This document shows, piece after piece, positions 3,564 to 50,544 of a DNA stretch of 64,000 nucleotides (positions are counted from its first letter, which is position 1; each line of letters starts with the position of its first letter). Under the pieces are notes generated by a model. It did no database searches and was not told the origin of the DNA. It worked only from the letters and a program-made list of their open reading frames with translations. Origin of the DNA: Clostridiales bacterium (GTDB lineage Bacteria > Bacillota > Clostridia > Oscillospirales > Oscillospiraceae); contig JALFRA010000013.1 in NCBI GenBank assembly GCA_022785125.1, positions 124,001-188,000 of the forward strand, read 5' to 3'. The position numbers and the translations under genes were made by a program.

Positions 3564-3822
3564 ATGCCCGTCCTTCCGGACGGGCATCAGTCTGTGAAAA
3601 GATCTCCCCCAAGGGAAGCCTCGCAGAGTTCCGTCGCCCGCAGGCGACGGAATCAAATCAGAATTAGTCCTTTCCCAGGACATATCCTGGGAAAGGACTC
3701 TTCTCATGACGGATGGGGTGACTATTTCACAAGAAATCGAGCCCCATCCGTCATGCAGCCCTTTGCCGGAAAAGACCCGCGGTCTTTTCCGGCAGTCTCA
3801 TGCCCGTCCTTCCGGACGGGCA
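3564..3822. mobile_element. Hairpin element E1, flanked by two copies of the hup terminator stem
   Basis: The 23-bp terminator hairpin (core GCCCGTCCGGAAGGACGGGC) occurs at 3800-3822, next to hup, and again at 3564-3586. Only the distal copy has the T-tract. Between them (3587-3799) are four perfect hairpins: 3629-3652 (10 bp, loop CGCA), 3666-3699 (14 bp), 3707-3753 (12 bp) and 3764-3794 (14 bp). Linkers CGCAGAGTT, TCAGAA, GGACAT and CTTCTCA are shared with element E2 at 13247-13680 while the stems differ. No protein is encoded. Confidence 0.8.
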
Positions 3823-3839
3823 ATTTTTATCAGGTCAGA

Positions 3840-4115
3840 TTACTGAGCCACGACGTCCTTCAGGGCCTTGCCGGGCTTGAACACGGGCACCTTGGAGGCG
3901 GGGATCTTAATGCTCTCCTTGGTCTTGGGGTTGCGGCCGGTGCGCTCGGCACGGCACTTCACCTCAAAGGCGCCAAAGCCCACCAGCTGGACCTTATCGC
4001 CCTCGGCCAGGCACTGGGAAATGACCTCGATGGCGGCGTTGATGGCGGTCTCGGTATCCTTCTTGGACAGGCCGGCCTTCTCGGCGGCCGCATTGATCAG
4101 TTCAGCCTTGTTCAT
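3840..4115 (-). CDS. hup: DNA-binding protein HU
   Basis: A 91-residue HU/IHF-family nucleoid protein that bends and compacts DNA as a dimer. It starts MNKAELINAAAEKAG and contains the HU signature GFGAFEVKCRAERTGRNPKT leading into the DNA-gripping beta arm, then IPASKVPVFKPGKALKDVV, all typical. An AGGAGGAAAGC stretch precedes the ATG. It lies 60 nt downstream of mazG in the same direction. Its terminator has been duplicated by element E1. Confidence 0.97.
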   Translation of the reverse strand: MNKAELINAAAEKAGLSKKDTETAINAAIEVISQCLAEGDKVQLVGFGAFEVKCRAERTGRNPKTKESIKIPASKVPVFKPGKALKDVVAQ

Positions 4116-4175
4116 GTTGCTGCTTTCCTCCTGTTTTGCTCTGTTGTACTTGTTATTTACTTAAGGCGTCTGCCT

Positions 4176-4964
4176 TTAAGTTTCCTTGGCGTGCTCCCAT
4201 AGCTTGTCCAGTTCTTCCAGAGTCATGCCCTCCATGGACTGATTCTGGGCGGCGGCCTGCTCCTCCACCTTGGCGAAGCGGCCGATGAACTTGTCGGTGG
4301 CCTGGCCCAGAGCCTCCTCCGGGTCTACCTTCAGAAAGCGGGAGACGTTGACGGCGGAGAAGAGCAGGTCCCCCAGCTCCTCCTCCACGTTGGTGCCCTC
4401 GGCCACGGCGGTTTTCAGCTCCTCCAGCTCCTCGGACAGCTTGTCCAGGGCGCCGGAGATATCCGGCCAGTCGAAGCCCGCCTTTTTGGCCTTTTTCTGC
4501 ACCTTCTCGGCACGCCACAGGGCGGGCAGAGAGCGGGCCACGGCGTCCAGGGCGTCGGTGTTGGTGGCCTGGCCCTTTTCCCTGCGCTTGAGCTCCTCCC
4601 AGTTGGTGAGCACCTCGCCGGTGCCCGACACGCTCACGTCCCCAAACACATGGGGGTGGCGGTAAATGAGCTTTTTGCACACGCCGTCGGCCACATCGTC
4701 CAGATCGAACCGGCCGGCCTCCTGTTCCATACGGGCGTGGAAGAGCACCTGGAGCAGCACGTCCCCCAGTTCCTCCTTCAGGTGATCGGGGTTTTGCTCG
4801 TCAATGGCCTCCACGGCCTCATAGGCCTCCTCCAGGAAGTTGCGGCGGATGGACTCATGGGTCTGTTCCGCGTCCCAGGGGCAGCCGCCGGGGGCGCGGA
4901 GGATGCGTACGATCTCCTCCAGGTCCCGGACGTCATAGGAATCCTTATACTGAAAATCTACCAT
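4176..4964 (-). CDS. mazG: Nucleoside triphosphate pyrophosphohydrolase MazG
   Basis: A house-cleaning enzyme that hydrolyses NTPs and dNTPs to monophosphates. It has two MazG domains (about residues 10-125 and 145-240). The first carries GGCPWDAEQTHESI, the metal-binding EEAYEAVEAI and EELGDVLLQVLFH; the second carries EELGDLLFSAVNVSRFL. The 262-residue length is that of the bacterial two-domain form. It sits 37 nt downstream of the flippase gene, the conserved yabM-yabN order of Firmicutes. Confidence 0.94.
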   Translation of the reverse strand: MVDFQYKDSYDVRDLEEIVRILRAPGGCPWDAEQTHESIRRNFLEEAYEAVEAIDEQNPDHLKEELGDVLLQVLFHARMEQEAGRFDLDDVADGVCKKLIYRHPHVFGDVSVSGTGEVLTNWEELKRREKGQATNTDALDAVARSLPALWRAEKVQKKAKKAGFDWPDISGALDKLSEELEELKTAVAEGTNVEEELGDLLFSAVNVSRFLKVDPEEALGQATDKFIGRFAKVEEQAAAQNQSMEGMTLEELDKLWEHAKET

Positions 4965-5001
4965 ATTTCAAGGCCTCCTGCAACCTCTTTTTCCAAAAAA
5001 C

Positions 5002-6762
5002 TCAGCGGATGCGCAAGAGTTTCGCGATCTTATCGCCCTTGGGCATCATTTCCAGGTCCTCCCTGGACAGCACCTTCAGCACCACGATGAGGATGACGTA
5101 CACCACCACGCCGGCCAGGATGCCGCCGCCGGTGGCAATGGCGTTCATCAGGAAGGAGCCGGAGAAGAACCGGGCCAGCAGACCCTGGCAGCCCCAGGCC
5201 GCCGCCGCCATAAGGAGGGAGGCGATAAGGGGCTTGACAAAGACGGGGATGAGCCGGGGGGGATGGGGCACCATCCGTTTGATGACGATGAGGTTGAGCA
5301 CCGACACCACCACAAAGCAGGTCAGGGTGCCGATGGGGGCGCCGTAGATCATGAACTTGGGGTTGCCCACCAGGGTGTAGCTGACGATAACCTTGGCCAC
5401 GCCGCCGATCACCATGGTGATGATGGGCAGGTTGATGATGCCGTTGGCCTGGAGGATGGCGGAGGCCACCACCTGGATGCACACAAAGAGGGAGGCGATG
5501 CCCAGGATGGACAGCAGGGGTCCGGCGATGGTCTCATCCACGTTGCCCACGGTGAGCAGCTGGATGATGGGGGTACCCAGGGCGAACAGGCCGAAGCCGC
5601 AGGGCAGGGCGATGAGGGCGGACACCCGCATGGCGGACTCGGTGGTGCGGTGGGCGCCCAGGCCGTCCCGCCGGGCGATGCAGGCGGACACGGCGGGCAC
5701 GATGCAGGCGGTAAAGGGAACCATGAGGTTGAAGGGCAGGTTGTAGATGCTCATGGTCTTGCCGTAGATACCGTACAGTCCCCGGGCGGAGTCCAGCACC
5801 GGGTTGAGCTGGGTGTCCGGATTGGTGAGCACCTCCGCCTGGAAGGCGGCCAGGTTGTCCTGGAAGATGGCCACGGCCTTGGGGAAGATGTCCAGCACGC
5901 TGTTGGAGATGCCGGTGAGGCCGTCCTGAATGGCGGTGAACACGGTTTGCAGCTGGCTCTGCACCAGGTTGGTGTCAATGAGGTTGACGATGGACAGGGT
6001 GCAGGAGCTGAGGGTGATGGGAATGGCCAGCTTGAGCAGGTGGGAGAGGATGCTTCTGCTGCTGTCGGGCACGTCGCTGGAGGGGGTCCGATCCCGCCGG
6101 TTGGTGCGGATGTGGTTAAAGACCAGATAGCACACCGACAGAATGGAGCCGATGGACACGCCCAGCAGAGCGCCGGAGGCGGACAGCCGGCTCTTCAGGT
6201 CCTGGTCGGGGATGGCGGAGTTGAGGATGAGGAAGGCCAGGGCCAGGCCCAGGAACATCTTGGACAGGGCCTCAATGACCTGGGAGACGCCGGTGGGCAC
6301 CATGTTCATGTGGCCCTGGGCGTAGCCCCGGAAGGCGGAGCAGATGCAGGTACACAGCACCGCCGGAGACAGGGCCAGCACGGCAAAGACGGCCTTCTTG
6401 TTCTGCAGCACATATTTGGCCACAATGGGAGAGAACACCGACATACACACGAAGCTGAGCAGGCCCATGAACAAAAAGGCGAAGAAGGCCACCTGGAACA
6501 CCCGGGACTTCTGGTTCCGGCGGCCCAGGGTGTTGCACTCGCTTACCGTCTTGGACAGGGCCACCGGCAGGCCTGCGGTGGAGATGGTGAGAAAGAAAGT
6601 GTAGATGTTGTAGGCCGCGTTGAAGTCGCCGTAGGCCTCGTCGGACAGCAGGGCGGTCAGTGGGATCTTGTAGATGGCGCCGATGACCTTGACGATGATG
6701 GTGGTCATGGCCAGAATGGCCGCCGCGCCGTAAAAGCTATTTTTCTTCTGCTGGTTTGACAA
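5002..6762 (-). CDS. MOP-superfamily lipid/polysaccharide flippase (YabM/SpoVB-like)
   Basis: A 586-residue polytopic membrane protein with about 14 hydrophobic segments, of the MVF/MATE-like polysaccharide-transporter fold used by SpoVB, MurJ and Wzx. It begins with a short polar tail and a first membrane segment GAAAILAMTTIIVKVIGAIY, and has the repeated GLPVALSKTVSE and LPCGFGLFALG turns. Position upstream of mazG and rqcP matches Bacillus YabM. A role in lipid-linked cell-wall or spore-cortex precursor export is inferred from family. A loop of about 60 residues after membrane segment 8 is longer than usual. It starts 12 nt after the deaminase gene, so the two are probably co-transcribed. 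Confidence 0.82.
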   Translation of the reverse strand: MSNQQKKNSFYGAAAILAMTTIIVKVIGAIYKIPLTALLSDEAYGDFNAAYNIYTFFLTISTAGLPVALSKTVSECNTLGRRNQKSRVFQVAFFAFLFMGLLSFVCMSVFSPIVAKYVLQNKKAVFAVLALSPAVLCTCICSAFRGYAQGHMNMVPTGVSQVIEALSKMFLGLALAFLILNSAIPDQDLKSRLSASGALLGVSIGSILSVCYLVFNHIRTNRRDRTPSSDVPDSSRSILSHLLKLAIPITLSSCTLSIVNLIDTNLVQSQLQTVFTAIQDGLTGISNSVLDIFPKAVAIFQDNLAAFQAEVLTNPDTQLNPVLDSARGLYGIYGKTMSIYNLPFNLMVPFTACIVPAVSACIARRDGLGAHRTTESAMRVSALIALPCGFGLFALGTPIIQLLTVGNVDETIAGPLLSILGIASLFVCIQVVASAILQANGIINLPIITMVIGGVAKVIVSYTLVGNPKFMIYGAPIGTLTCFVVVSVLNLIVIKRMVPHPPRLIPVFVKPLIASLLMAAAAWGCQGLLARFFSGSFLMNAIATGGGILAGVVVYVILIVVLKVLSREDLEMMPKGDKIAKLLRIR

Positions 6763-6774
6763 CGGTAGTCCCCC

Positions 6775-8076: not shown

Positions 8077-8125
8077 GGTTCTTGTCTCCTTTGGTCGTGA
8101 TAAAAGGATATGGGCGGGGGAGACA

Positions 8126-8177
8126 GCCTTCCCCTGGGGGAAGGTGCCCCAGTGTGTACACTGGGGCGGATGAGGGG
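8126..8177. repeat. C/G-run palindromic repeat, copy 2 (half-length)
   Basis: Hairpin CCTTCCCCTGGGGGAAGG followed by a second hairpin TGCCCCAGTGTGTACACTGGGGCG and then GATGAGGGG. It corresponds to one half of the longer copies elsewhere. It fills the gap between punA and the deaminase gene, inside the probable transcript. Confidence 0.75.
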
Positions 8178-8225
8178 AAGAATATCGTCTGCTGCCCGAG
8201 CCGGTCTGTATTTCCCCGCGCCTGA

Positions 8226-9053: not shown

Positions 9054-9118
9054 AAAAAATCCTCCTTAACAGCGGATAACATGAATGGTTTCGTTTCTAT
9101 TAAAGGTTAATCTATGCA

Positions 9119-9147
9119 ATTATACACCTTGTAATAGGAAAAAGCAA
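9119..9147 (-). promoter_or_regulatory. SigA-type promoter of punA
   Basis: TTGCTT (9142-9147), a 17-nt spacer and TATAAT (9119-9124) on the minus strand, about 65 nt upstream of the punA start. Confidence 0.75.
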
Positions 9148-9195
9148 TGAGGATTGCAGGGCGGAATGGGGAACAAAAGTTCCAGAACTCCCCTC

Positions 9196-9224
9196 TTGAC
9201 TGGTACGTTTGTTCGATATATAAT
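9196..9224 (+). promoter_or_regulatory. SigA-type promoter of the radical-SAM gene
   Basis: TTGACT, a 17-nt spacer and TATAAT. Transcription would begin near 9231, which rules out any start codon upstream of it and supports the GTG at 9246. Confidence 0.85.
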
Positions 9225-9245
9225 GGAGCCAAAGGGGGGAGCACA

Positions 9246-10496: not shown

Positions 10497-10497
10497 A

Positions 10498-13213: not shown

Positions 13214-13713
13214 AACCGGCGGGCTGCGTCAGCAGCCCGCCGGTTTAGACTGTCGAAAAAGCCCCCTGGCCAAAGGTTTCGGAGGGAAGGATAGTGTGAA
13301 AGGGACAGACTGTCAAAAAAGGCAGAACTGATACAAGAGAGAAATAAGTTCTTGCACCGCGGAAAAGCCCTCGGCAGAGTTTTGCCGCCCGCAGGCGGCA
13401 AAACAGAGTCAGAAGCTGTTTTTTCCAAGGACATGAGCCTTGGAAAAAACACTTCTCAGCCCGCAAGCGTGCGCGCTTTGCGTGTGCGACGCAGCGGGCT
13501 GCATCCCCTCGAAAAAATGCTTGCATTTTTGAGAAGCGTGTCGAGCTTTCTCGACACGCTGAGGGAACCGTCAGGGTTCCCTTTCGCGTGCAATCAAACA
13601 ACTTTTGAGGACTTATGGAAGGCCTCAAAAGTTTAGCAGACAGTCAAAAAAGTGGCCGCAGCCACTTTTTTGACTGTCTGAACCGGCGGGCTGCGTCAGC
13701 GGCCCGCCGGTTT
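13214..13713. mobile_element. Hairpin element E2, flanked by two copies of the rny terminator
   Basis: A 33-bp terminator (CCGGCGGGCTGC stem, loop GTCA) is present at 13214-13246 and, with one change that keeps pairing as a G-T wobble, at 13681-13713. Only the distal copy ends in T5. Between them are eight hairpins, including 13379-13404 (11 bp, loop CGCA), 13418-13450 (13 bp), 13535-13560, 13600-13633 and 13637-13680 (perfect 20 bp, loop CGCA). Linkers GCAGAGTT, TCAGAA, GGACAT, CTTCTCA and TGCA-CCC match element E1. This accounts for the whole rny-spoIIID gap; no gene was seen in it. Confidence 0.82.
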
Positions 13714-30673: not shown

Positions 30674-30679
30674 GAAGAG

Positions 30680-30793
30680 GCTTCCCCCCTCTGGGGGGAA
30701 GCTGGCGAGCGCAGCGAGACTGATGAGGGGCTCCTCCGGTAAGCCCCCCTCATCCGGCCCTGGGGCCCACCTTCCCCCCTCTGGGGGGAAGGT
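30680..30793. repeat. C/G-run palindromic repeat, copy 3
   Basis: Full-length copy between birA and the convergent HAD gene, with the GCGAGCGCAGCGAGAC arm also seen in copy 1. It begins 7 nt after the birA stop. Confidence 0.85.
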
Positions 30794-30800
30794 CAGAAAG

Positions 30801-36046: not shown

Positions 36047-36163
36047 ACCTTCTCCCCCCAGGGGAGAAGGTGGGCCAGGGGGCCGGATGAGGGGGCGCAG
36101 GCAAGGGGGAACCCCTCATCAGTCAGCCTGCGGCTGCCAGCTTCCCCCCACAGGGGGGAAGCC
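36047..36163. repeat. C/G-run palindromic repeat, copy 4, inside the ileS leader
   Basis: Full-length copy between the T-box terminator and the ileS start codon, on the ileS transcript. Contains the TCAGCCTGCGGCTG arm seen in copy 5. Confidence 0.85.
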
Positions 36164-36177: not shown

Positions 36178-36412
36178 AAAAAGCGCCTTCGTCTCTTAAG
36201 AGACAAAGGCGCACACCTCTGCGGTACCACTCTCATTGTTCCGGGCATACCGGAACCACTCGACAGCCTGTAACGGGGCCAGCCGGGGCCGCTTACTCAG
36301 TTCGGCGGCCATGCTCAGAGGTGATTTTCCCGGCCCGTCCTGTCCGCCTTGCACCAAAATGGCGGCTCTCTGCGCAGGGTTGGGGGCGGTACTCGTCCTC
36401 GTCACAGCATGT
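36178..36412 (-). ncRNA. T-box riboswitch (isoleucine specific) controlling ileS
   Basis: On the minus strand Stem I is closed by ATGCT/AGCAT (36406-36410 with 36311-36315). The 3' side of the specifier loop reads GGAAAATCACC, putting the Ile codon ATC at 36323-36325. The T-box ATGAGAGTGGTACCGCAG (36219-36236) includes the UGG bases that pair with the uncharged tRNA end. The terminator GCGCCTTTGTCTC with T5 (36178-36212) follows. Uncharged tRNA-Ile would stabilise the antiterminator and allow ileS expression. Confidence 0.93.
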
Positions 36413-36428
36413 TACAGATGAAAATCAC

Positions 36429-37731: not shown

Positions 37732-37786
37732 TTAGAAATACAGCCCGTTGTTCTCCAGCTCGTCGATGAGATCGCCCAGAATGTCC
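37732..37786 (-). pseudogene. Duplicated 3' end of sepF (55 bp, downstream copy)
   Basis: It encodes the same last 17 residues and TAA as sepF (DILGDLIDELENNGLYF), with four base changes, all synonymous (ATC/ATT, ATT/ATC, GAT/GAC, TTG/CTG). The codons here are the GC-rich ones typical of this genome, so this is probably the original gene end, displaced by element E3. Confidence 0.9.
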
Positions 37787-37942
37787 GCCCCACCCGATGC
37801 TGCGTATCGTGCGGGGACCCCGTTTTTAAATCTGCTCGGGCGAAATGAATTCGCCCGGCATCAAGGTTTTTGCTGCGCAAAAACGCTTGGGACGCCGGAC
37901 TCCCGGCGGGACAACGTGGACGTTGTTCTCCAGAGACCGGGT
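37787..37942 (-). mobile_element. Hairpin element E3 behind sepF
   Basis: 156 bp between the sepF stop and the duplicated sepF tail. Read in the gene direction it has GTTTTTGC-GCA-GCAAAAAC, then GGGCGAA-TTCAT-TTCGCCC followed by GAGCAGAT, then CGGGGTCCCCG, and ends GGGTGGGGC. These blocks are shared in order with E4 and E5. It encodes no protein. Confidence 0.8.
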
Positions 37943-38452
37943 TTAGAAATACAGCCCGTTGTTCTCCAACTCATCAATGAGATCGCCCAGGATGTCCACG
38001 TTGTAGGGCGTGATGATGTAAGTGGAGATGGCCACCTTCTTGATCTTGCCCTCGTTGGCGTAGGCCACGCCGGACAGGAAGTCCAGCAGGCGGCGGGCAA
38101 TGTCCTTGTTGGTGGACTCCAGGTTGAGGACCACGGTGCGCTTTTCGCGCAGATGGTCGGCGATCTCGCTGGCGTTCTCAAAGCGCTCGGGCTTCACCAG
38201 CACCACCTGCAGCTGGGTGGTGGTGTGGATGTTGACCACCTTGTTGCTGCGGCGCTCGTTATCCAGGGAATAGAGGCTGCCGGTGGACTCGGAAACGGCC
38301 TGGCTCTTGGCGCTCTTGCGCTCCAGACGGTCGCCGCCGGTGCGGTCCATCCGCTCACTGCGGGAGACAGGCTCGAAGTCGTCCTCGTAGTCGTCCTCCG
38401 GCTCGTCCTCATAGGGGCGGGCCAGCCGCCGCAGCTCATCAAACAATCCCAT
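37943..38452 (-). CDS. sepF: Cell division protein SepF
   Basis: 169 residues. An N-terminal amphipathic membrane helix (MGLFDELRRLARPYEDE), an acidic linker, and the C-terminal SepF domain (VVNIHTTTQLQVVLVKPERF then DHLREKRTVVLNLESTNKDIARRLLDFLSG). It links FtsZ to the membrane at the septum. The last 17 codons are duplicated downstream of the stop. The copy in the gene uses slightly more AT-rich codons than its duplicate. Confidence 0.96.
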   Translation of the reverse strand: MGLFDELRRLARPYEDEPEDDYEDDFEPVSRSERMDRTGGDRLERKSAKSQAVSESTGSLYSLDNERRSNKVVNIHTTTQLQVVLVKPERFENASEIADHLREKRTVVLNLESTNKDIARRLLDFLSGVAYANEGKIKKVAISTYIITPYNVDILGDLIDELENNGLYF

Positions 38453-40910: not shown

Positions 40911-41024
40911 GCCTTCCCCCTCGGGAGGAAGGTGGCCCGCAGGGCCGGATGAGGGGGCGTGGGTAAGAAGGAACCCCTCATCAGTCAGCCTATGGCTGCC
41001 AGCTTCCCCCCACCGGGGGGAAGC
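40911..41024. repeat. C/G-run palindromic repeat, copy 5
   Basis: Full-length copy between hfq and the duplicated mutL tail, abutting the latter (its last base is next to the displaced TAA). Confidence 0.85.
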
Positions 41025-41103
41025 TTACGCCCGTCCGAATCGCTTCTCAATCTGCTGGCGGGTCAATTCTATCGCAACCGGCCTGCCATGGGGGCAATAC
41101 TTG
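41025..41103 (-). pseudogene. Duplicated 3' end of mutL (79 bp, downstream copy)
   Basis: It encodes KYCPHGRPVAIELTRQQIEK then RFGRA and TAA exactly as the end of mutL, including the CPHGRP motif. The first 48 nt are identical to mutL; eight changes in seven codons cluster in the last 31 nt and all are synonymous (CAG for CAA, GAG for GAA, AAG for AAA, CGG for AGA, GCG for GCA and others). These are the codons typical of this genome. Confidence 0.92.
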
Positions 41104-41232
41104 TGCCCCAGCGGGCAGGCCCGCCGGGGACCCCCGATGATTTTACATCCTCGGGCGAAGTGAATTCGCCCTGCGGCAAGGTTTTGCTGCGCAAAACGCT
41201 TGGACGCGCCGACGGCGCGCACAAGGTCAAGT
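41104..41232 (-). mobile_element. Hairpin element E4 behind mutL
   Basis: 129 bp from the mutL stop to its duplicated tail. In the gene direction: GCGCGCC/GGCGCG hairpin, GTCC, GTTTTGC-GCA-GCAAAAC, GCAGGGCGAA-TTCAC-TTCGCCC, GAGGAT, CGGGGGTCCCCGG and a final GCTGGGGC. The same blocks occur in E3 and E5. Confidence 0.82.
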
Positions 41233-43230
41233 TTATGCTCTGCCGAACCGTTTTTCAATCTGTTGGCGGGTCAATTCTATCGCAACCGGCCTGCCATGGG
41301 GGCAATACTTGACCGTGCCCGCCATGACGGCACGGGCTACCTTGAGCAGTTCGGCCTCCCCGTTTTTCTGGCCCCCCTTGATGGCCGCCTTGCAGGCCAT
41401 GGTGTGGAGGAGGGCGTCCCGGGCGCTGTCCGGGTCGGCGGTGCCGCAGGTAATGAGCCTGCCCGCCAGCTCCAGCAGCACGTCGGGAATGGCGGCGGCG
41501 TCCACGTCGTCGGGGGCGGCGCGCACGATGATGGCCCCGCCGCCAAAGTCCTCCGCCTCAAAGCCAAAGCGCTCCAGCAGGGGCAGCTGAGCCAGCAGCG
41601 CGGCCCCCTCCTCCGCCGGAGGGGTAAAGACCACCGGGGTCAGGAGGGTCTGGACCATGGGGGTGTACCCCGCCGCCTTCAGGCGGTCAAAGTTCATCCG
41701 CTCATGGGCGGCGTGCTTATCGATGAGGAGCACCTTGTCCCCCTGCTCCACGATGATGTAGGTGTTTAAGACCTCCCCCGCCATGCGCCAAGGTGTTTCT
41801 TCCGGCTCAGGTTGGATGGGAGTCTGGGGCTCCACAGGGGGGACGGTGGGAGTGGGTTCCTTCTCGACCGTAGGGGCGACCCTTGTGGTCGCCCGCGGAG
41901 CCTCGGGAGATACCTCCACAGGCGGGGTGGTTTTGGCCGGGATGGGCCGCTCCGGGACCGTAGGGGCGCACAGTGTGCGCCCGCCGTCGGACAGGGCGGT
42001 GGAGGGACTCCCGGGCGCGCGCTGCGCGCCCATACAGGCGGGGGCCGCCTGCACAGGCTGAGCGGTTTGGGCAGGCCGGGCGGTAAAATCATGGAGGGCC
42101 AGGGACGACGCGGGCTTGCTTGCCGTCTTGCGGAACTGCTCCGCCGTCATGGTGCGGAAGGTGGTCTGGTGGGGGGGCACCGTGTCCTGGGCCGCCTTGG
42201 GAGCCAGCCGGGGGCTGTCCCCCAGGGCGGAGGGCCGGGACCGGTCAGCCTCCAGGGTGGATTTTACGGCGTAATACACCGCGTCAAACACCTTTTTATC
42301 GCTGCCGAACTTGACCTCCTGCTTGGTGGGGTGGACGTTCACGTCCACGGCGTTGAGCTTGGTGGTGAGATGGAGGACGCAGCCGGGGAACTTGCCCACC
42401 ATCTTCTGGTTGGCGTAGGCCTCCTCCAGGGCGGCCATCATGGTGCGGCTCTTTACATACCGGCCGTTGACGAAGAAGTGCTGATAGCCCCGGGTGCCCC
42501 GGCAGCAGGTGGGCAGGGACACAAAGCCGGTGACCGTCATATCCTCCCCGGAGCCCTTCACCGGGGTAAAGCCCAGAGCCAGGTCACGGCCCAGCACGGC
42601 GTACAGGGCGGACTGGAGCTTGCCGTCGCCGGGGGTGAGCAGGTCCTGCTTGCCGTCCCGGAGGAACTTGATGCTCACCTCCGGGTGGGACAGGGCCAGC
42701 CGCTGGATCATGGCAAAGCAGGCGGCGCTCTCGGCGGAGTCCTTCTTCATGAACTTGAGCCGGGCGGGGGTGTTGTAAAACAGGTCCTTCACCACCATGG
42801 TGGTGCCCTGGGGACAGCCCGCCTCCTCCTGACTCACCACCACGCCTGCCTCCAGAGAGAGGGCGGTGCCCAGGGGGGCATCAGCGGGGCGGGTGAGCAG
42901 CTCCATCCGGGACACGGCGGAGATGGCGGCCAGAGCCTCGCCCCGGAAGCCCAGGGTGCCGATGGCCTCCAGGTCGTATTCGGTGCGCAGCTTGCTGGTG
43001 GCGTGGCGGAGGAAGGCGGTGGGGGCCTCGTCGGCGGCAATGCCGCAGCCGTTGTCGGTGACCCGGATCAGGGTCATGCCCCCGTGCTGGATCTCCACCG
43101 TCAGCTTGTCGGCCCCGGCGTCAATGGCGTTTTCCATCAGTTCCTTTACCACGGAGGCGGGCCGCTCCACCACCTCGCCGGCGGCAATCAGATCGGCCAC
43201 ATGGGAGTCAAGTTGTTGGATGTGAGGCAT
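41233..43230 (-). CDS. mutL: DNA mismatch repair protein MutL
   Basis: 665 residues. The GHKL ATPase part has MENAIDAGADKLTVEI, DNGCGI, TLGFRGEALAAISAV and GTTMVVKDLFYNTPAR. The C-terminal dimer/endonuclease part has DKHAAHERMNFD (the usual last Glu of the metal motif is Asp) and CPHGRP. A Pro/Thr-rich linker (about 380-470) contains two in-frame REP palindromes, read as PRATTRVAPTV and GGRTLCAPTV. The final 25 codons are more AT-rich than the rest and are duplicated downstream. Confidence 0.95.
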   Translation of the reverse strand: MPHIQQLDSHVADLIAAGEVVERPASVVKELMENAIDAGADKLTVEIQHGGMTLIRVTDNGCGIAADEAPTAFLRHATSKLRTEYDLEAIGTLGFRGEALAAISAVSRMELLTRPADAPLGTALSLEAGVVVSQEEAGCPQGTTMVVKDLFYNTPARLKFMKKDSAESAACFAMIQRLALSHPEVSIKFLRDGKQDLLTPGDGKLQSALYAVLGRDLALGFTPVKGSGEDMTVTGFVSLPTCCRGTRGYQHFFVNGRYVKSRTMMAALEEAYANQKMVGKFPGCVLHLTTKLNAVDVNVHPTKQEVKFGSDKKVFDAVYYAVKSTLEADRSRPSALGDSPRLAPKAAQDTVPPHQTTFRTMTAEQFRKTASKPASSLALHDFTARPAQTAQPVQAAPACMGAQRAPGSPSTALSDGGRTLCAPTVPERPIPAKTTPPVEVSPEAPRATTRVAPTVEKEPTPTVPPVEPQTPIQPEPEETPWRMAGEVLNTYIIVEQGDKVLLIDKHAAHERMNFDRLKAAGYTPMVQTLLTPVVFTPPAEEGAALLAQLPLLERFGFEAEDFGGGAIIVRAAPDDVDAAAIPDVLLELAGRLITCGTADPDSARDALLHTMACKAAIKGGQKNGEAELLKVARAVMAGTVKYCPHGRPVAIELTRQQIEKRFGRA
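41867..41899. repeat. REP sequence inside mutL (first)
   Basis: CGTAGGGGCGACC-CTTGT-GGTCGCCCGC, read through in frame in the MutL linker. Confidence 0.8.
41957..41985. repeat. REP sequence inside mutL (second)
   Basis: CGTAGGGGCGCAC-AGT-GTGCGCCCGC, 90 bp from the first copy, same orientation, in frame. Confidence 0.8.
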
Positions 43231-43324: not shown

Positions 43325-43329
43325 TGGGA

Positions 43330-44031: not shown

Positions 44032-44060
44032 GGTGTGTTCCTCCTTTTTTGTGGTTGGTT

Positions 44061-46658
44061 TTATACCAGCTGCTTCAATTCAAAGAGCAGGTTCATGGCC
44101 TCAATGGGGGTGAGGGTGTTCAAGTCCACCGCCTGGAGCCGCCGGGCCACCTCGCCGCCCCCCATGTCCAGCAGGGACATCTGGTCGGTGGTCTGCGCCG
44201 CCGGGGCCTGGGGGGTCTGGATGCCTCCGGCCTCCAGCTCCTTCAGGATGTGGCGGGCCCGGGTGATGACCTTGTCGGGCACCCCGGCCAGCTTGGCCAC
44301 CTCGATGCCGTAGCTCTGGTCGGCCCCGCCGGGGACGATCTTCCGCAGGAAGAGGATGTCGTCCCCCTTCTTCTTGGCGGCGATGTTGTAGTTCTTCACC
44401 CCGGGGATGACCCCCTCCAGGGCGGTGATCTCATGGTAGTGGGTGGCAAAGAGGGTCTTGGCCCCTAACCGCTTTTTGTCGGCGCAGTACTCCAGCACCG
44501 CACGGGCGATGGACATACCGTCGTAGGTGGAGGTGCCCCGGCCGATCTCGTCCAGGATGAGCAGGCTCTTGCTGGTGGCGTTTTTTAAGAGCTCCGCCAC
44601 CTCGGTCATCTCCACCATAAAGGTGGACTGACCGGCGGACAGGTCGTCGCTGGCTCCAATGCGGGTGAATACCCGGTCCACGATGCCGATGCGGGCCGAG
44701 CGGGCGGGGACGAAGGAGCCCATCTGGGCCATCAGGACAATGAGGGCCACCTGGCGCATATAGGTGGACTTACCCGCCATATTGGGGCCGGTGATGATGG
44801 CCACCGTGTTGTCTTTCCCGTCCATCCGGGTGTCGTTGGGGACAAAGAGGGCATTTTTCAGCATCTTTTCCACCACCGGGTGGCGGCCCTCGGAGATGTC
44901 GATGGTGTCGGACAGGTCCACCTCGGGGCGGCAGTAGCCGTTCTCGGCGGCCACGGCGGCAAAGGAGGCCAGCACGTCCACCTGGGCCACGGCGGCGGCG
45001 GAGCGCTGGATGTCCCCCACCCGGGCGGCGGCCTGCTGCCGCAGGTCGCAGAAGAGCTGGTACTCCAGAGCGGTGACTCGGTCCTGGGCGGACAGGATCT
45101 CGTGCTCCAGGTCCTTCAGCTCCTGGGTGATGAACCGCTCGCAGTTGGCCAGGGTCTGCTTGCGGATGTAGTGCTCGGGCACCTGGTCGTAGTAGGACTT
45201 GGATACCTCGATGTAGTAGCCGAACACCTTGTTGAAGCCCACCTTCAGGCTCTTGATGCCGGTCTTTTCCTTCTCCCGGGCCTCCACAGCGGCCACCAGG
45301 TCCTTGCCGCCCGTGAGGATGTCCCGCAGCCGGTCCACCTCGGCGTTGTAGCCCGCCCGGATGAAGCCGCCCTCCCGGACGGAGAAGGGGGGCTCGTCCA
45401 CAATGGCGGAGCAGATCAGCTCCCGCAGGTCGGGCAGGTCGTCCAGACTGGCGGACAGGGAGGTGAGCAGGGCGCCGGAGTAGGGGGAGAGCAGCTCCCG
45501 CAGCCGGGGCAGCTTGCCCAGGCCGGTGGCCAGGGCCATCAGATCCCGGCCTCCTGCGGTACCATACACGATGCGGCCGATGAGCCGCTCCAGGTCGGTG
45601 ACCTCCCGGAGGGTGTTTTTCAGCTCGTCCCGGCCGATGGGGTCGCCCACCAGCTCCTCCACCGCGCCCAGACGGCGGCTGATGGCGCCGGGGGAGAGCA
45701 GGGGCCGCTCCATCCAGGTACGGATGAGCCGGTGGCCCATGGCGGTGCGGGTCTTGTCCAGCACCCACAGCAGGCTCCCCTTCTTCTCCTTGGAGCGGAG
45801 GGTCTCGGTGAGCTCCAGATTGCGCCGGGCGGTGAGGTCCAGCTCCATAAACTGGCCGGAGGTGTACCAGCTGAGGCTGGTGATGTGGGAGAGGTCGGTT
45901 TTCTGAGTTTCGTAGAGGTAGCTCAACAGGCCCCCCACCGCCTGGAGGGCGTGGTCGTCCCCCTGGGGCAGCTGGTCCAGACCGCTGGTGAACTGCTCCT
46001 CCACCAGGGAGCGGGCGGAATCAGGCCGGAAGCGGGCCTCCCCGCCGTTCTCGCACCGGCAGTCCAGCTTGCCCGTGAGAAAGTCCAGCAGGGCGGCGTC
46101 GCTGTAGGCCCCGTCGGACAGCATGGCCTCCCGGGGGGAGAAGCGGCCCAGCTCGTTGCACAGGTGCTCGGCGGCGTCGGGGCCGGTAAAGGAGGTGACG
46201 GAGATCTCGCCGGTGGAGATGTCGCAGAAGCACAGCCCCGATCCGGCAGAGTCCTCATAGATGGCGCAAATAAAGTTGTTGCGGCCCTCCTCCAGCATGG
46301 AGGAGGCGATGACGGTGCCGGGGGTGACGATGCGGATGATGTCCCGGTCCACCAGCCCCTTGGCGGTGGCGGGGTCCTCCATCTGCTCGCAGATGGCCAC
46401 CTTGTAGCCCTTGGCGATGAGCCGGGCGATGTAGGCGTCGGCGCTGTGGTAGGGCACGCCGCACATGGGGGTGCGCTGATCCTCCGGCTTGCCCCGGTCC
46501 CGGGTGGTGAGGGTGAGATCCAGCTCCTTGGAGGCCAGCTTGGCGTCCTCCTGGAACATCTCGTAGAAGTCACCCAGCCGGAAAAAGAGGATGCAGTCCG
46601 GGTGGAGTTCTTTCATTTTGAGATATTGTTTCATCATGGGGGTCAGCTCGGACGGCAT
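44061..46658 (-). CDS. mutS: DNA mismatch repair protein MutS
   Basis: 865 residues. The mismatch-binding domain has CILFFRLGDFYEMFQEDA (Phe-x-Glu wedge). The ATPase has GPNMAGKSTYMRQVALIVLM (Walker A), LLILDEIGRGTSTYDGMSIA (Walker B/signature) and ATHYHEITAL. ATG 46656-46658 has AAAAGGAGCGCC 5 nt upstream. The start overlaps the end of the RAYT gene by 16 nt, so RAYT now sits directly upstream in the miaB-mutS-mutL operon. Confidence 0.98.
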   Translation of the reverse strand: MPSELTPMMKQYLKMKELHPDCILFFRLGDFYEMFQEDAKLASKELDLTLTTRDRGKPEDQRTPMCGVPYHSADAYIARLIAKGYKVAICEQMEDPATAKGLVDRDIIRIVTPGTVIASSMLEEGRNNFICAIYEDSAGSGLCFCDISTGEISVTSFTGPDAAEHLCNELGRFSPREAMLSDGAYSDAALLDFLTGKLDCRCENGGEARFRPDSARSLVEEQFTSGLDQLPQGDDHALQAVGGLLSYLYETQKTDLSHITSLSWYTSGQFMELDLTARRNLELTETLRSKEKKGSLLWVLDKTRTAMGHRLIRTWMERPLLSPGAISRRLGAVEELVGDPIGRDELKNTLREVTDLERLIGRIVYGTAGGRDLMALATGLGKLPRLRELLSPYSGALLTSLSASLDDLPDLRELICSAIVDEPPFSVREGGFIRAGYNAEVDRLRDILTGGKDLVAAVEAREKEKTGIKSLKVGFNKVFGYYIEVSKSYYDQVPEHYIRKQTLANCERFITQELKDLEHEILSAQDRVTALEYQLFCDLRQQAAARVGDIQRSAAAVAQVDVLASFAAVAAENGYCRPEVDLSDTIDISEGRHPVVEKMLKNALFVPNDTRMDGKDNTVAIITGPNMAGKSTYMRQVALIVLMAQMGSFVPARSARIGIVDRVFTRIGASDDLSAGQSTFMVEMTEVAELLKNATSKSLLILDEIGRGTSTYDGMSIARAVLEYCADKKRLGAKTLFATHYHEITALEGVIPGVKNYNIAAKKKGDDILFLRKIVPGGADQSYGIEVAKLAGVPDKVITRARHILKELEAGGIQTPQAPAAQTTDQMSLLDMGGGEVARRLQAVDLNTLTPIEAMNLLFELKQLV

Positions 46659-47140
46659 GGCGGGCGCTCCTTTTCTGTGACGGTATAGTAGCGATCCAGC
46701 TCCCATTTCTGGGGGTTCTGGTCGATATAGGTCCAAATGGTTTGAAAATCGTCGGTATTGCGGATAAGGTGGTCGTGGTAGCCCCGCTGCCAGACCGGTG
46801 CACCCCATGCTTTGGTCACCAAAGTCTTAAAGGAACGCACCACATTCGTCAGAGTAGGGGCCGATGCCCTCATCGGCCCGCTCTCCAGGGTTACCAAAAA
46901 ATGAACGTGGTTGGGCATGACCACAAACTTGATCATACCGGGGATGGAGGACAGATGGCGCTCTGCCAGCTGTCCCAGCGGGGTGAGCCTGACCTGCGGG
47001 GCGATGTAGGCATCGCCCCCTACGATGGTAGATAGCGTGTGGCGGCGGTCCCTGGTGCAGATGGTAATGAAATAAGTACCGCCGGAGGTGTAATCCCAGG
47101 TTTTTAAACGGAGATTCTTACGGACAGGATAATCCGCCAT
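46643..47140 (-). CDS. REP-associated tyrosine transposase (RAYT, Y1/HUH family)
   Basis: 165 residues of the IS200-like Y1 transposase fold. The HUH metal motif is MPNHVHFLVTLE and the catalytic tyrosine lies in WQRGYHDHLIRN. GGTYFITICTRDRRH at the start is typical of RAYTs. Such enzymes cut single-stranded REP hairpins. Two REP palindromes lie inside its own coding sequence (46854-46881, 46996-47023) and one 16 nt upstream of its start. It appears intact. Its 3' end overlaps mutS. Confidence 0.92.
   Translation of the reverse strand: MADYPVRKNLRLKTWDYTSGGTYFITICTRDRRHTLSTIVGGDAYIAPQVRLTPLGQLAERHLSSIPGMIKFVVMPNHVHFLVTLESGPMRASAPTLTNVVRSFKTLVTKAWGAPVWQRGYHDHLIRNTDDFQTIWTYIDQNPQKWELDRYYTVTEKERPPCRPS
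46854..46881. repeat. REP sequence inside the RAYT gene (1)
   Basis: GTAGGGGCCGATG-CCCT-CATCGGCCCGC, translated in frame as part of SGPMRASAPT just after the HUH motif. Confidence 0.8.
46996..47023. repeat. REP sequence inside the RAYT gene (2)
   Basis: Complement of GTAGGGGGCGATG-CCTA-CATCGCCCCGC, translated in frame as part of VGGDAYIAPQ. Confidence 0.8.
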
Positions 47141-47155
47141 CTAACCCACCTCCCT

Positions 47156-47183
47156 GCGGGCCGATGTGGGCATCGGCCCCTAC
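47156..47183. repeat. REP sequence between miaB and RAYT
   Basis: Complement of GTAGGGGCCGATG-CCCA-CATCGGCCCGC; it overlaps the last codons of miaB. Confidence 0.8.
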
Positions 47184-48583: not shown

Positions 48584-48618
48584 AACGGTTCCTCCCGAAA
48601 AGTCTGTATCAATACTCA

Positions 48619-48647
48619 ATCATAGCACTTTTTGCACTCAAACACAA
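48619..48647 (-). promoter_or_regulatory. miaB promoter
   Basis: TTGTGT (48642-48647), 17-nt spacer, TATGAT (48619-48624) on the minus strand. Initiation near 48612 supports the TTG start at 48583. Confidence 0.7.
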
Positions 48648-48664
48648 GGCCTGTCCCCTTTTCA

Positions 48665-48693
48665 TTGACTCAAATCGGCAGGGAGTATATAAT
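48665..48693 (+). promoter_or_regulatory. Promoter of the Alr-like gene
   Basis: TTGACT, 17-nt spacer, TATAAT on the plus strand, divergent from the miaB promoter. Confidence 0.85.
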
Positions 48694-48726
48694 GGAAAGG
48701 ACTACCCACGGAAAGGCGGCTGAGCC

Positions 48727-49794
48727 ATGAAAACCCTGGTCATCGAGCGGGACGCACTGAAACATAATATCTCCGTGGTCAAGGAGCGGGCGGGGAGCGC
48801 CGTGATCTACGGCGTGGTCACCGGAGACGGACAGGGGGCCGGTCTGGTGGAGCTGGCAAAGGCCCTGCGGGCCGAGGGCATCGGCCGCTTCGCCGTGTCC
48901 GAGGTGGCGGAGGCCGCCGCCCTGCGGAAGGCGGGCTTTGTGGAGGAGGAGATCCTCATGCTCCGTTGCACCACCGACCGGGAGGAGCTGGAACAGCTGC
49001 TGGACCTGAACGTGATCTGCACTGTGGGCTCCCACGACAGCGGCATGGCCCTCAACGGGGTGGCGGAGGCCCGGTCCACCATTGCCGAGGCCCATATCCA
49101 GATCGACACCGGCATGGGCTTCGGGGGCTTTCTCTCCAGCGAGCCGGAGAAGATTTTGTCCACCTTCCGGGACCTGTCCAGCATCGCTGTGTCCGGGGTG
49201 TGTACCCAGCTGTACACCAAGAGCCGCAAGGGCAAGGCCCTGGCGGCCCAGGTGGAGGAGTTTACCAAAACGGTGGAGGCCATCCACGCCGCCGGATTTG
49301 AGACGGGCACCGTCCACGCCGCCGGGTCCTATGTGCTGATGCACCACCCCGCCGCCCGGCTGGGGGGCGTCCGGGCGGGTACCGTCCTCATGGGCCGGTG
49401 CCGCCGGGCCAGAGGAGACGGCCTGCGCCGGGTGGGCTACGGCGAGGTCAAGGTGGAGGAGACCCGCTGGGTGCCCAAGGGCCACATTGTGGGGGGCAAC
49501 ACCCCCGCGCCCCTGAAGAAGAACACCCGGGTGGCGGTGCTCCCCGTGGGCTATCAGAACGGCTTCGGCATGGGCCGCCCCTGGGCGGGAGGCCTGCTGG
49601 ACGCCATCCGCCGCTGGCTCACCCAGCGGCAGATCACCGTCCGGGTCAACGGCCAGAAGGCCAGAGTTATCGGGGGCATCGGCGCCATCGAGACCATCGT
49701 GGACGTGACCGACCTGAAATGTACCGCCGGAGACAAGGCGGTGTTTGATATCGACCCCATTTTTGCCAAGGGGTTTGTCCGGGAGTACCGGTAA
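48727..49794 (+). CDS. Alanine racemase-like protein lacking the PLP lysine
   Basis: 355 residues with the alanine racemase layout: N-terminal TIM barrel, C-terminal beta domain. The position of the PLP-binding lysine motif (AVVKANAYGHG in Alr) reads YGVVTGDGQGAG, with Thr for Lys. Other barrel landmarks remain: IQIDTGMGFGGF and the C-terminal VAVLPVGYQNGFGMGRP. It probably cannot form the internal aldimine, so racemase activity is doubtful; a regulatory or non-catalytic role is possible. Relatives may exist in Oscillospiraceae. GAAAGGCGGCTGAGCC precedes the ATG. Confidence 0.8.
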   Translation: MKTLVIERDALKHNISVVKERAGSAVIYGVVTGDGQGAGLVELAKALRAEGIGRFAVSEVAEAAALRKAGFVEEEILMLRCTTDREELEQLLDLNVICTVGSHDSGMALNGVAEARSTIAEAHIQIDTGMGFGGFLSSEPEKILSTFRDLSSIAVSGVCTQLYTKSRKGKALAAQVEEFTKTVEAIHAAGFETGTVHAAGSYVLMHHPAARLGGVRAGTVLMGRCRRARGDGLRRVGYGEVKVEETRWVPKGHIVGGNTPAPLKKNTRVAVLPVGYQNGFGMGRPWAGGLLDAIRRWLTQRQITVRVNGQKARVIGGIGAIETIVDVTDLKCTAGDKAVFDIDPIFAKGFVREYR

Positions 49795-49805
49795 GGGGAC
49801 CCGGC

Positions 49806-49863
49806 ACCCCCTCATCCGTCATTTGCTTTGCAAATGCCACCTTCCCCCCTGAGGGGGGAAGGT
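49806..49863. repeat. C/G-run palindromic repeat, copy 6 (half-length)
   Basis: CCCCCTCATCC, a GTCATTTGC/GCAAATGCC hairpin and CCTTCCCCCCTGAGGGGGGAAGG, between the Alr-like gene and dtd. Confidence 0.75.
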
Positions 49864-49892
49864 CTTACCCCAAAAAGAAAGGAATTTAAACT

Positions 49893-50336
49893 ATGCGCGC
49901 AGTTGTGACAAGAGTGAAAAACGCCTCCGTCACCATCGACGGCAAGGTGAACGGCGAGATCGGCCAGGGCTTTCTGGTGCTGCTGGGGGTAGCCCCCGGC
50001 GATACCAAGGCCCAGGCCGTCAAGATGGCCGACAAGGTGTGCGGTCTGCGCATCTTTGAGGACGAGAATGAGAAGATGAACCTGAATCTGGAGGCGGTGG
50101 GGGGGTCCCTGCTGGTGGTGAGCCAGTTCACCCTGTACGCCGACACCAAGTCCCGCCGCCCCGGCTTCTCCGGGGCCGCCAAGCCGGATATCGCCATTCC
50201 CCTGTACGAGAAGTTCATGGCCGAGTGCGCCGGCCGGGGTTTTGAGGTCCAGCACGGCGAATTCGGCGCCGATATGCAGGTTTATTCTCAAAATGACGGT
50301 CCTGTGACCATCCTGCTGGACACCGACCAGATGTAA
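49893..50336 (+). CDS. dtd: D-aminoacyl-tRNA deacylase
   Basis: 147 residues. MRAVVTRVKNASVTIDGKV at the start; the substrate-gating SQFTLYAD and the cross-subunit GP dipeptide in NDGPVTILLD near the end are the DTD signature (family SQFTLY...NxGPxT). It removes D-amino acids and glycine from mischarged tRNAs. AAAGGAATTTAAACT precedes the ATG. The last 24 codons and the stop are duplicated 133 bp downstream. Confidence 0.95.
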   Translation: MRAVVTRVKNASVTIDGKVNGEIGQGFLVLLGVAPGDTKAQAVKMADKVCGLRIFEDENEKMNLNLEAVGGSLLVVSQFTLYADTKSRRPGFSGAAKPDIAIPLYEKFMAECAGRGFEVQHGEFGADMQVYSQNDGPVTILLDTDQM

Positions 50337-50469
50337 GGCTGAATTCGCCCCCGCGCTTTGCGCGTCCGAGCGTTTTGCCACAGGCAAAACCTCGATGCCG
50401 GGCGGATTCACTCCGCCCGAGCAGATCAAAAGATGCGGGGTCCCCGCAGGGCCGTGGCCCTGTGGGGGA
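50337..50469 (+). mobile_element. Hairpin element E5 behind dtd
   Basis: 133 bp between the dtd stop and its duplicated tail. CGCGC/GCGCG hairpin, GTCC, GTTTTGCC-ACA-GGCAAAAC, CCTCGATGCC, GGGCGGA-TTCAC-TCCGCCC, GAGCAGAT, CGGGGTCCCCG, a GGGCC-GT-GGCCC hairpin and TGTGGGGG. The block order equals E3 and E4, with stem bases changed on both sides (GGGCGGA/TCCGCCC against GGGCGAA/TTCGCCC). Confidence 0.82.
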
Positions 50470-50544
50470 TTTGGCGCTGATATGCAGGTTTATTCTCAAA
50501 ATGACGGTCCTGTGACCATCCTGCTGGACACCGATACCATGTAA
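50470..50544 (+). pseudogene. Duplicated 3' end of dtd (75 bp, downstream copy)
   Basis: It encodes FGADMQVYSQNDGPVTILLD then TDTM and TAA. Against dtd, TTC/TTT, GCC/GCT and GAC/GAT are synonymous and one codon changes Gln to Thr (CAG/ACC). The 51 nt in the middle are identical. Confidence 0.9.

What the first reader, a model, noticed from the sequence alone, without database searches (positions are those of the whole stretch)
3564..50544. Synthesis: a possible undescribed gene-end-replacing mobile element system
Five of five loci combine (i) position directly behind a gene, (ii) a protein-less hairpin element, (iii) direct repeats of that gene's own end, (iv) the native-looking end on the far side. 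A single crossover between a circle carrying element plus gene tail from a related strain and the chromosomal gene would give this layout, including synonymous allele differences. Site-specific insertion with a gene-restoring tail is the alternative. No recombinase is adjacent to any copy, so a trans-acting enzyme is needed. The only candidate nuclease in the window is RAYT at 46643, and its link to these elements is unproven.
Basis: inference. Interest (0 to 1): 0.9.

Follow-up and report, generated by a model that had tools for sequence, protein, structure and literature searches.

The report
Protein-free elements that replace gene ends
Gut bacteria of the Flavonifractor group carry dozens of tiny hairpin elements with no protein of their own that sit inside the end of a different gene each, bring along a spare copy of exactly that gene end, and usually carry a short stretch complementary to that gene, which looks like a natural, self-repairing, gene-targeting mobile element of a kind I could not match to any described in bacteria.

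Summary
Three of the five loci (mutL, dtd, sepF) carry one structured ~115-nt family, "E": 491 matches in 20/20 genomes of the genus, matches in 109/300 genomes of the family. Of 169 copies examined, 153 have a flanking direct repeat, nearly all of a gene end or start (mismatched control 10/2474). Layout: gene body | T1, b1, a', E | T2, native flank. T1 completes the gene; T1/T2 codon differences are mostly synonymous (418 versus 105). New here: a', just 5' of E, is the reverse complement of the gene across the insertion point x (101/153 at or above the null 99th percentile) and covaries with it between species. Relatives have clean empty sites. At truB, E is 96% identical between genera whose gene body is 70% identical; at other sites horizontal movement is not shown. 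hup and rny belong to a second family that duplicates terminator-like hairpins. RAYT is not required. Best reading: a guide-bearing, gene-restoring, homing-like element without its own protein; enzyme unknown. Nearest analogue: fungal mitochondrial mORF elements.

The parts
41312..43230 (-). mutL body up to insertion point x (whole ORF as it now stands: 41233-43230)
   Evidence: Pfam DNA_mis_repair, MutL_C, HATPase
41229..41311 (-). mutL T1: tail copy now attached to the gene
   Evidence: direct repeat, 89% to 41021-41103; 7 synonymous, 0 nonsynonymous of 26 codons
41225..41232 (-). mutL a': 8 nt, reverse complement of the gene sequence spanning x (read by eye; automatic score 13, below the threshold of 20)
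   Evidence: sequence; score
41106..41221 (-). E element, mutL copy
   Evidence: cmsearch 111.8 bits; fold z = -3.06
41021..41103 (-). mutL T2: displaced tail next to the native downstream flank
   Evidence: same flank in E-free G007
49893..50336 (+). dtd (D-Tyr-tRNA deacylase) including T1 (about 50261-50336)
   Evidence: Pfam Tyr_Deacylase; repeat; 3 synonymous, 1 nonsynonymous of 25 codons
50341..50349 (+). dtd a': complement of gene sequence spanning x (automatic score 19, just below the threshold of 20)
   Evidence: sequence
50348..50467 (+). E element, dtd copy
   Evidence: cmsearch 124.9 bits; fold z = -6.72
50469..50544 (+). dtd T2: displaced tail beside the native flank
   Evidence: single-piece match of the reconstructed empty site in G016, G007, G018
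37943..38452 (-). sepF including T1 (37943-37997)
   Evidence: Pfam SepF; repeat 93%; 4 synonymous, 0 nonsynonymous of 18 codons
37911..37921 (-). sepF a': complement of gene sequence spanning x
   Evidence: score 22, null 99th percentile 20
37788..37908 (-). E element, sepF copy
   Evidence: cmsearch 108.9 bits; fold z = -3.95
37732..37786 (-). sepF T2: displaced tail
   Evidence: direct repeat
3564..3586 (-). hup terminator-like hairpin, outer copy (second family)
   Evidence: 100% identical to 3800-3822
3587..3799 (-). second-family hairpin element at hup
   Evidence: blast 3619-3706 (C12:127619-127706)
3800..3822 (-). hup terminator-like hairpin, copy next to hup
13214..13246 (+). rny terminator-like hairpin, copy next to rny (second family)
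   Evidence: 97% to 13681-13713
13247..13680 (+). second-family hairpin element at rny
13681..13713 (+). rny terminator-like hairpin, far copy

Best explanation
E is a small, gene-targeting mobile element without a protein of its own that behaves like a homing element carrying its own repair. SHOWN: compared with empty relatives, the extra unit is T1-b1-a'-E, placed at point x inside a coding sequence, typically 36-99 nt before the CDS boundary (stop codon, or start codon when E points the other way). T1 re-supplies the gene end so the gene stays intact. E is a structured module whose last hairpin abuts x. In most copies a' is complementary to the gene sequence across x, and it tends to change with it. 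The displaced tail T2 stays next to its native flank. E lineages are mostly site-specific and patchily present; at truB, E is shared between genera whose gene bodies have diverged. INFERRED: a', placed 5' of the hairpins like a guide, pairs with one strand of an empty allele at x in a related strain. A trans-acting enzyme cuts or opens DNA there. The allele that carries E is then copied in, with homology left of x (gene body) and right of x (T2). T1 makes insertion into a conserved gene harmless. Recombination between T1 and T2 deletes E again and leaves mosaic tails, giving gain and loss. Not decided: whether the guide acts as RNA or single-stranded DNA, and which enzyme is used.
For: Flanking repeat 153/169 versus 10/2474 mismatched pairs. 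At 102 gene-end copies the repeat ends within 5 nt of the stop codon in 59 (58%; shuffled 15%). 418 synonymous versus 105 nonsynonymous codon differences in 137 copies (neutral synonymous share 0.23). a' >= null 99th percentile in 101/153; the match extends upstream of x in 106/109 of the stronger ones. Covariation between orthologous insertions: where a differs, a' changed in 72/110 positions, 49 of them keeping the pair; where a is the same, a' differs in 200/1624. Structure: 18 of 29 pairs with two-sided changes, covariation 0.410 versus 0.137 shuffled, 0/500. Copy 2 starts 0-5 nt (median 2) after E. Empty sites in one piece: L113 (recF by its C-terminus, recalled) in G004 348/348 at 97%, dtd in G016 326/326 at 94%, mutL in G007 344/344 at 92%; the model finds E in 5 of 36 fetched orthologous loci, 31 are empty. 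L113 versus G004: gene body 1.7% different, T2 5.9%, T1 20%. truB-site E 96% between G000 and G110 with gene body 70%. T1-like codons in an E-free allele: L110 site in G004.
Against: No enzyme was found. T1 and T2 within a genome are closer (0.070) than orthologous tails between genomes (0.131, 0.137), which suits local duplication or gene conversion better than import of a foreign T1. Against 29 E-free loci T2 is closer in 12, T1 in 9, ties 8 (tally), so which copy is native is not uniform. a' is below the 99% threshold in 52/153 copies, among them mutL and dtd of the window. Where T1 and T2 differ inside the a' span, a' matches T1 in 22, T2 in 11, neither in 11, so a' fits the occupied allele better than T2. 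In 38 of 110 positions a changed and a' did not. Outside truB only 8 of 19 distinct cross-genus same-site pairs have E more alike than the gene body (recounted), so horizontal movement rests mainly on truB. Reverse transcriptase is present in 7 of 9 near-complete genus genomes. No transcript data.
Confidence: 0.55

Rival explanations
1. Ordinary MITE with a long target-site duplication. An unknown transposase makes cuts 40-100 nt apart; T1 and T2 are the duplicated target. Only insertions near a CDS boundary survive because elsewhere the gene would be broken.
For: T1 and T2 are closest to each other within a genome; a second hairpin family in the same genome duplicates whole terminator-like hairpins, 7 of 14 scorable copies; copy 2 starts right behind E.
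Against: Neutral intergenic insertions should be common, yet 142 of 149 copies with a close repeat could be framed as a gene end or start by a permissive test (3 not, 4 too short), and the 150 nt left of x are coding-like in 138 of 149. T1 can be 20% different from the tail of an E-free relative whose gene body is 98% identical (L113/G004). a' and its covariation are unexplained. E lineages follow the target site: nearest neighbour same site in 107/138.
Confidence: 0.2
2. Passive spread by host recombination: circles or imported DNA carrying tail plus E recombine into the gene tail; E itself does nothing.
For: Mosaic T1/T2 tails and an E-free allele with T1-like codons; tandem (T-E)n arrays; outside truB, E and gene body diverge at about the same rate between genera.
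Against: Does not create new sites or the gene-specific a'; right junction is set at the last hairpin; at truB, E is shared between genera with 70% gene-body identity; strong covariation of structure and of a/a'.
Confidence: 0.12
3. Old, host-useful RNA or UTR elements inherited vertically, with T1/T2 homogenised by gene conversion and frequent loss.
For: Conserved structure, T1/T2 closer within than between genomes, housekeeping targets, E as diverged as the gene body at most non-truB cross-genus pairs.
Against: Sense at gene ends and antisense at gene starts (102 end, 40 start); absent from relatives with about 98% identical gene bodies; E hardly tracks gene-body divergence within the genus, Spearman 0.20.
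Confidence: 0.08
4. Retrohoming: an RNA of the E strand is reverse-transcribed at the target, the tail being part of the template.
For: Layout T1-b1-a'-E-T2 would fit a template with a primer-binding end; RVT_1 matches in 7 of 9 near-complete genus genomes.
Against: Near-complete G006 (99%, 25 E matches) and G012 (92%, 11 matches) have no RVT_1 match at E <= 0.001; matches in the others range widely in score and length, so no single shared enzyme is evident.
Confidence: 0.04
5. IS200/IS605- or REP-type single-strand transposition by a Y1 (RAYT) enzyme with an extended guide.
For: a' lies 5' of the hairpin foot and pairs with the left flank, as the IS608 guide does (passages of PMC6006769; PMC5934647); 12/17-nt target sites were engineered for IS608.
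Against: No Y1 family match in 23 of 42 E-rich genomes, 13 of them at least 90% complete, including G018; copies on both strands of one 64-kb window; the tail duplication is not an IS200/IS605 product (recalled).
Confidence: 0.04

Closest known systems
mORF (mobile ORF endonuclease) elements of fungal mitochondria: Allomyces atp6, Glomus atp6/atp9/cox2/nad3 (PMC3630166, passages read)
   Same: Same layout: gene body, inserted gene end in phase, element, displaced native gene end; there the native copy matches relatives and horizontal transfer is inferred.
   Different: mORFs encode a LAGLIDADG or GIY-YIG endonuclease; E is ~115 nt, carries a gene-specific complementary stretch, also replaces gene starts, and sits at about 70 site clusters in the 169 copies sampled. 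In E the displaced copy is not always the more native-like one.
IS200/IS605 and REP elements with Y1 transposases
   Same: Guide sequence 5' of a hairpin pairs with the target flank.
   Different: Complementary stretch 13 nt median (stronger copies), not 4; no Y1 gene in many E-rich genomes; tail duplicated; target is a specific gene.
OMEGA/CRISPR guide RNAs (IscB, TnpB, Cas9)
   Same: 5' guide plus structured scaffold resembles an IscB or Cas9 guide RNA (recalled).
   Different: No TnpB over cut-off in the own genome; IscB N-domain 0/20 but no control rang; Cas9 not searched; no Rfam match at gathering score on E.
Integrases that enter gene or tRNA 3' ends and restore them (recalled)
   Same: Gene end is restored by the element.
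   Different: Those carry an integrase and one attachment site; E is too short for one and is adapted to many different genes.

Membership tests
mORF / homing endonuclease gene-end replacer | gene body + inserted gene end + element + displaced native end | tested here: met
   153/169 copies have the repeat; empty sites; which tail is native is mixed
mORF / homing endonuclease gene-end replacer | element encodes a homing endonuclease | tested here: not met
   E is ~115 nt of hairpins
mORF / homing endonuclease gene-end replacer | horizontal spread to the orthologous site | tested here: inconclusive
   clear at truB (21 of 22 distinct cross-genus pairs, recounted); 8 of 19 distinct pairs at other sites
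IS200/IS605, REP/RAYT | Y1 transposase present in the host | tested here: not met
   no match in 23 of 42 E-rich genomes
IS200/IS605, REP/RAYT | guide 5' of hairpin foot pairs with target flank | tested here: met
Retroelement / group II intron / retron / DGR | reverse transcriptase in the host | tested here: inconclusive
   RVT_1 in 7 of 20 genus genomes, but 7 of the 9 near-complete ones; G006 and G012 lack it and carry E
Known structured RNA family | Rfam match at gathering score | tested here: not met
   whole window: only a T-box elsewhere; E and 20 loci: nothing at gathering score on E
OMEGA: IscB | RRXRR protein in the host | tested here: inconclusive
   0/20, but no control genome rang
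OMEGA: TnpB | TnpB in the host | tested here: not met
   own genome only; one sub-cut-off hit
Ordinary MITE | short fixed-length target-site duplication | tested here: not met
   repeat 36-113 nt (5-95%), tied to the CDS boundary
IS110 bridge RNA | DEDD transposase in the host | not tested

The most novel reading that the evidence does not exclude
E is a natural home-and-rescue drive without a protein of its own: each copy is a guide (a') plus scaffold (E) plus rescue end (T1) that directs a shared cellular or helper nuclease to the matching conserved gene in empty relatives and is copied in while keeping that gene working; dozens of site-specific lineages run in parallel in one genome.
Probability: 0.4. 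Interest if true: 0.97.

Novelty: categorically new. Interest (0 to 1): 0.9.

Why it matters
If true it is a new kind of mobile element: about 200 nt in all, no protein, addressed by base pairing to one gene, and harmless because it carries the missing gene end. It makes testable how a protein-less element finds and enters conserved genes, and points to an unidentified guide-using enzyme in common gut bacteria. It also means that gene ends in these genomes can be mosaic, which affects gene trees and annotation (a spare, unattached gene end beside many genes).

Tried and rejected
RAYT/Y1 as the enzyme: rejected by genomes without a match. Reverse transcriptase: not cleanly rejected; 7 of 9 near-complete genus genomes have one, G006 and G012 do not. 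TnpB: none over cut-off in the own genome. IscB: 0/20 but uninformative. Known Rfam family: none at gathering score (a weak sbcD hit, 18 bits against 40, did not recur). 'T1 is strongly recoded': weakened; GC3 is low in T1 (0.730) and T2 (0.762) against the gene body (0.887), but E-free native tails are low too (0.775; T1 of the same 12 sites 0.707, p = 0.04), so most of it looks like an ordinary gene-end effect. Phage or plasmid vehicle: exact pattern 0 hits in viral contigs, no phage match, one partial match on a Pusillibacter faecalis plasmid. Lagging-strand bias: not pursued. Literature: nine answered searches showed no title or abstract start that describes this family; passages of four papers were read.

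Rows dropped before counts, and weak points of the tests: L039 (no H4) and L041 (long H4) were left out of the 21-row model alignment; model hits under about 45 bits and two contig-end fragments were not carried into the 169, and repeats of one copy were removed when the list was typed; of the 153 copies with repeat, 4 with a distant repeat, 4 with short flank and 3 unframed were left out of the codon counts; copies with more than 40% nonsynonymous codons or fewer than 8 codons were dropped. Genome scans scored at most 150 candidates per genome and 12. In one search the CDS boundary was chosen as the one nearest the repeat end, which favours agreement; one search repeats the test on 102 gene-end copies with the stop fixed by the reading frame. 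Searches looked for gene bodies only on the a' side; one search checks both sides. The covariation test used copies with an a' score of at least 14. In one search a motif test called mutL of G018 and G004 occupied; searches show them empty. In one search the G194 row is mis-anchored and ignored. One search failed with a script error and was redone. One search lists 51 pairs, 8 of them twice and 2 within one genus; I recounted 41 distinct cross-genus pairs.
Full report
What was checked. The five loci of the finding are real. Pfam identifies the genes as mutL, dtd, sepF, hup (HU) and rny. In mutL, dtd and sepF the repeat is coding sequence up to the stop codon; in hup and rny it is a terminator-like hairpin.

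The E family. BLAST with the mutL element found 22 copies in the own genome. Twenty-one copies were aligned. The RNAalifold consensus has three helices (H2, H3, H4); an outer H1 is seen by eye and in the single folds. Eighteen of 29 pairs show two-sided compensatory changes. Against controls the covariation score is 0.410 versus 0.137 shuffled (0/500) and at most 0.097 when slid. A covariance model finds 50 matches in the own genome at E <= 0.01, 491 in 20 of 20 genus genomes at 1e-4 (my sum of its table, 150 candidates scored per genome) and hits in 109 of 300 family genomes, 55 of 106 genera (12 scored per genome). E reaches no Rfam gathering score.

Most copies are flanked by a gene end. 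I fetched loci, located E and kept 169 copies. The 220 nt upstream and 160 nt downstream share a direct repeat of score >= 30 in 153 of 169; in mismatched pairs from different sites 10 of 2474, at random window positions 8 of 600; in the own genome 38 of 45. Repeats are 36-113 nt (5-95%), median 62, median identity 94%; copy 2 starts 0-5 nt after E. With the stop codon fixed by reading frame alone, the repeat of 102 gene-end copies ends within 5 nt of the stop in 59 (58%; shuffled 15%), runs more than 10 nt past it in 21 and stops more than 10 nt short in 5. After re-framing, 102 are gene ends and 40 gene starts. Of 149 copies with a close repeat, the 150 nt left of x alone are coding-like in 107, both sides in 31, the far side of T2 alone in 1, neither (or too short) in 10: E points from the gene body outward, hence sense at gene ends and antisense at gene starts. 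Codon differences between copies are 418 synonymous and 105 nonsynonymous in 2476 codons from 137 copies, against a neutral synonymous share of 0.23.

The complementary stretch a'. Just 5' of the hairpins lies a stretch that is the reverse complement of the gene at x. In 101 of 153 copies its score reaches the 99th percentile of mismatched pairs, in 52 it does not; 106 of 109 stronger matches cross x to the upstream side, at the median from -5 to +9. The window's sepF copy passes (22); dtd (19) and mutL (13) do not, though both show it by eye. Between orthologous insertions, where the gene base differs a' changed too in 72 of 110 positions, keeping the pair in 49 (31 distinct site-position labels); where the gene base is the same, a' differs in 200 of 1624. 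The sequence around x reads roughly C-R-R-G-G-R|G in 94 distinct targets.

Empty sites and polarity. I joined gene body, T2 and flank of 13 own sites and searched seven relatives. Many match in one piece, e.g. L113 in G004 348/348 at 97%, L110 in G002 340 nt at 94%, dtd in G016 326/326 at 94%, mutL in G007 344/344 at 92%. Occupied relatives give two pieces, e.g. dtd in G004. Of 36 fetched orthologous loci the E model finds E in 5 and none in 31. Among the 29 scored empty, T2 is closer to the native tail in 12, T1 in 9, equal in 8. In the clearest case, L113 versus G004, the gene body differs by 1.7%, T2 by 5.9%, T1 by 20%. L110 in E-free G004 carries T1-like codons next to the native flank, as expected after T1/T2 recombination. 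At mutL, three of 21 loci are occupied (G000, G014, G017).

Inheritance. E at one site is closest to E at the same site in another genome in 107 of 138 cases; the 169 copies form 70 site clusters, 39 in two or more genomes. Within the genus E divergence hardly follows gene-body divergence (Spearman 0.20, 201 pairs). At truB, E is 96% identical between G000 and G110 (another genus) while the 200 nt of gene beside it are 70% identical. Recounted without doubles and same-genus pairs, E is more alike than the gene body in 21 of 22 cross-genus truB pairs but in only 8 of 19 pairs at other sites, so horizontal movement is clear at truB and not shown elsewhere. Within a genome T1 and T2 differ by 0.070, orthologous T1 by 0.131, T2 by 0.137, gene bodies by 0.098 (133 genome pairs): the two tails recombine or are copied locally. 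This is the main result against a simple import of a foreign tail.

Targets. By their C- or N-terminal sequence (names recalled, not searched) the own-genome targets look like Dtd, Upp, TruB, AlaS, MutL, SepF, RecF, AsnS, InfB, PrfC, NusA, PolC, Smc, PheT, GlyS, UvrC, Pgi, GpmI and others; many are conserved housekeeping genes, as expected of homing elements.

Enzyme. E is too short to encode a known enzyme. Y1 transposases are missing from 23 of 42 genomes with nine or more scored E copies, 13 of the 23 at least 90% complete (my tally; both scans used the same 300 genomes by their handles). Reverse transcriptase occurs in 7 of 20 genus genomes, but in 7 of the 9 near-complete ones; G006 and G012 lack a match. 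No TnpB over cut-off in the own genome. The IscB search was silent also in controls. Cas9 and IS110 were not searched.

Second family. The hup/rny element has 24 distinct places in the own genome by my count. Of 14 distinct copies with enough flank, 7 carry the same hairpin on both sides, 23-34 nt, with 0 to 3 mismatches by score (null 99th percentile 38, observed 46-68). It is a separate, terminator-duplicating element; whether it shares machinery with E is open.

Comparison. The layout matches mORF elements of fungal mitochondria, which insert a foreign gene end plus an endonuclease gene and displace the native end (PMC3630166, passages). E differs by having no protein, by its gene-specific complement and by also serving gene starts. 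The placement of a' resembles the IS200/IS605 guide (PMC6006769 and PMC5934647, passages). I found no description in nine answered searches of the held library, which holds open-licence papers only and of which I saw listings.

Limits. One genome per species, many fragmentary; relatives' copies are the best-scoring part of 491; no transcript data; the enzyme and the molecule type of the guide are inferred.

Noticed in passing
window 40915-41024, 36053-36162, 1726-1830, 30677-30794, 49837-49864: A separate REP-like family (CTTCCCCC..GGGGGAAG, GGCCGGATGAGGGGGC) lies at several places of the window, one directly behind mutL T2; one search shows matches in many genus genomes. It is not part of the tail duplications.
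   Followed up: partly
window 36196-36414 (-): T-box leader, 121.9 bits.
   Followed up: no
window 46643-47140 (-): Weak Y1_Tnp (RAYT-like) gene, 24.6 bits; one of three Y1 matches in the genome, another one has an internal stop.
   Followed up: partly
L147, L148, L149, L150, L153, L223: Tandem arrays: two E copies 187-254 nt apart on the same strand; in the ones I read a tail copy lies between them.
   Followed up: partly
L128 (1501-1677), L143 (620-804), L179 (332-510): E copies with a similar ~60-nt insertion in the loop of hairpin H3.
   Followed up: no
L301-L320: Second hairpin family, often with the same terminator-like hairpin on both sides; several copies sit at contig ends, suggesting a longer repeated relative.
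   Followed up: partly
NZ_AP023421.1 5046-5124: E-like match (82%, 64% of the query) on a 504-kb plasmid of Pusillibacter faecalis predicted conjugative, a possible vehicle.
   Followed up: no
137 framed E sites and 12 own sites with E-free relatives: Third-position GC is lower near gene ends than in the gene body, also in native tails without E.
   Followed up: partly
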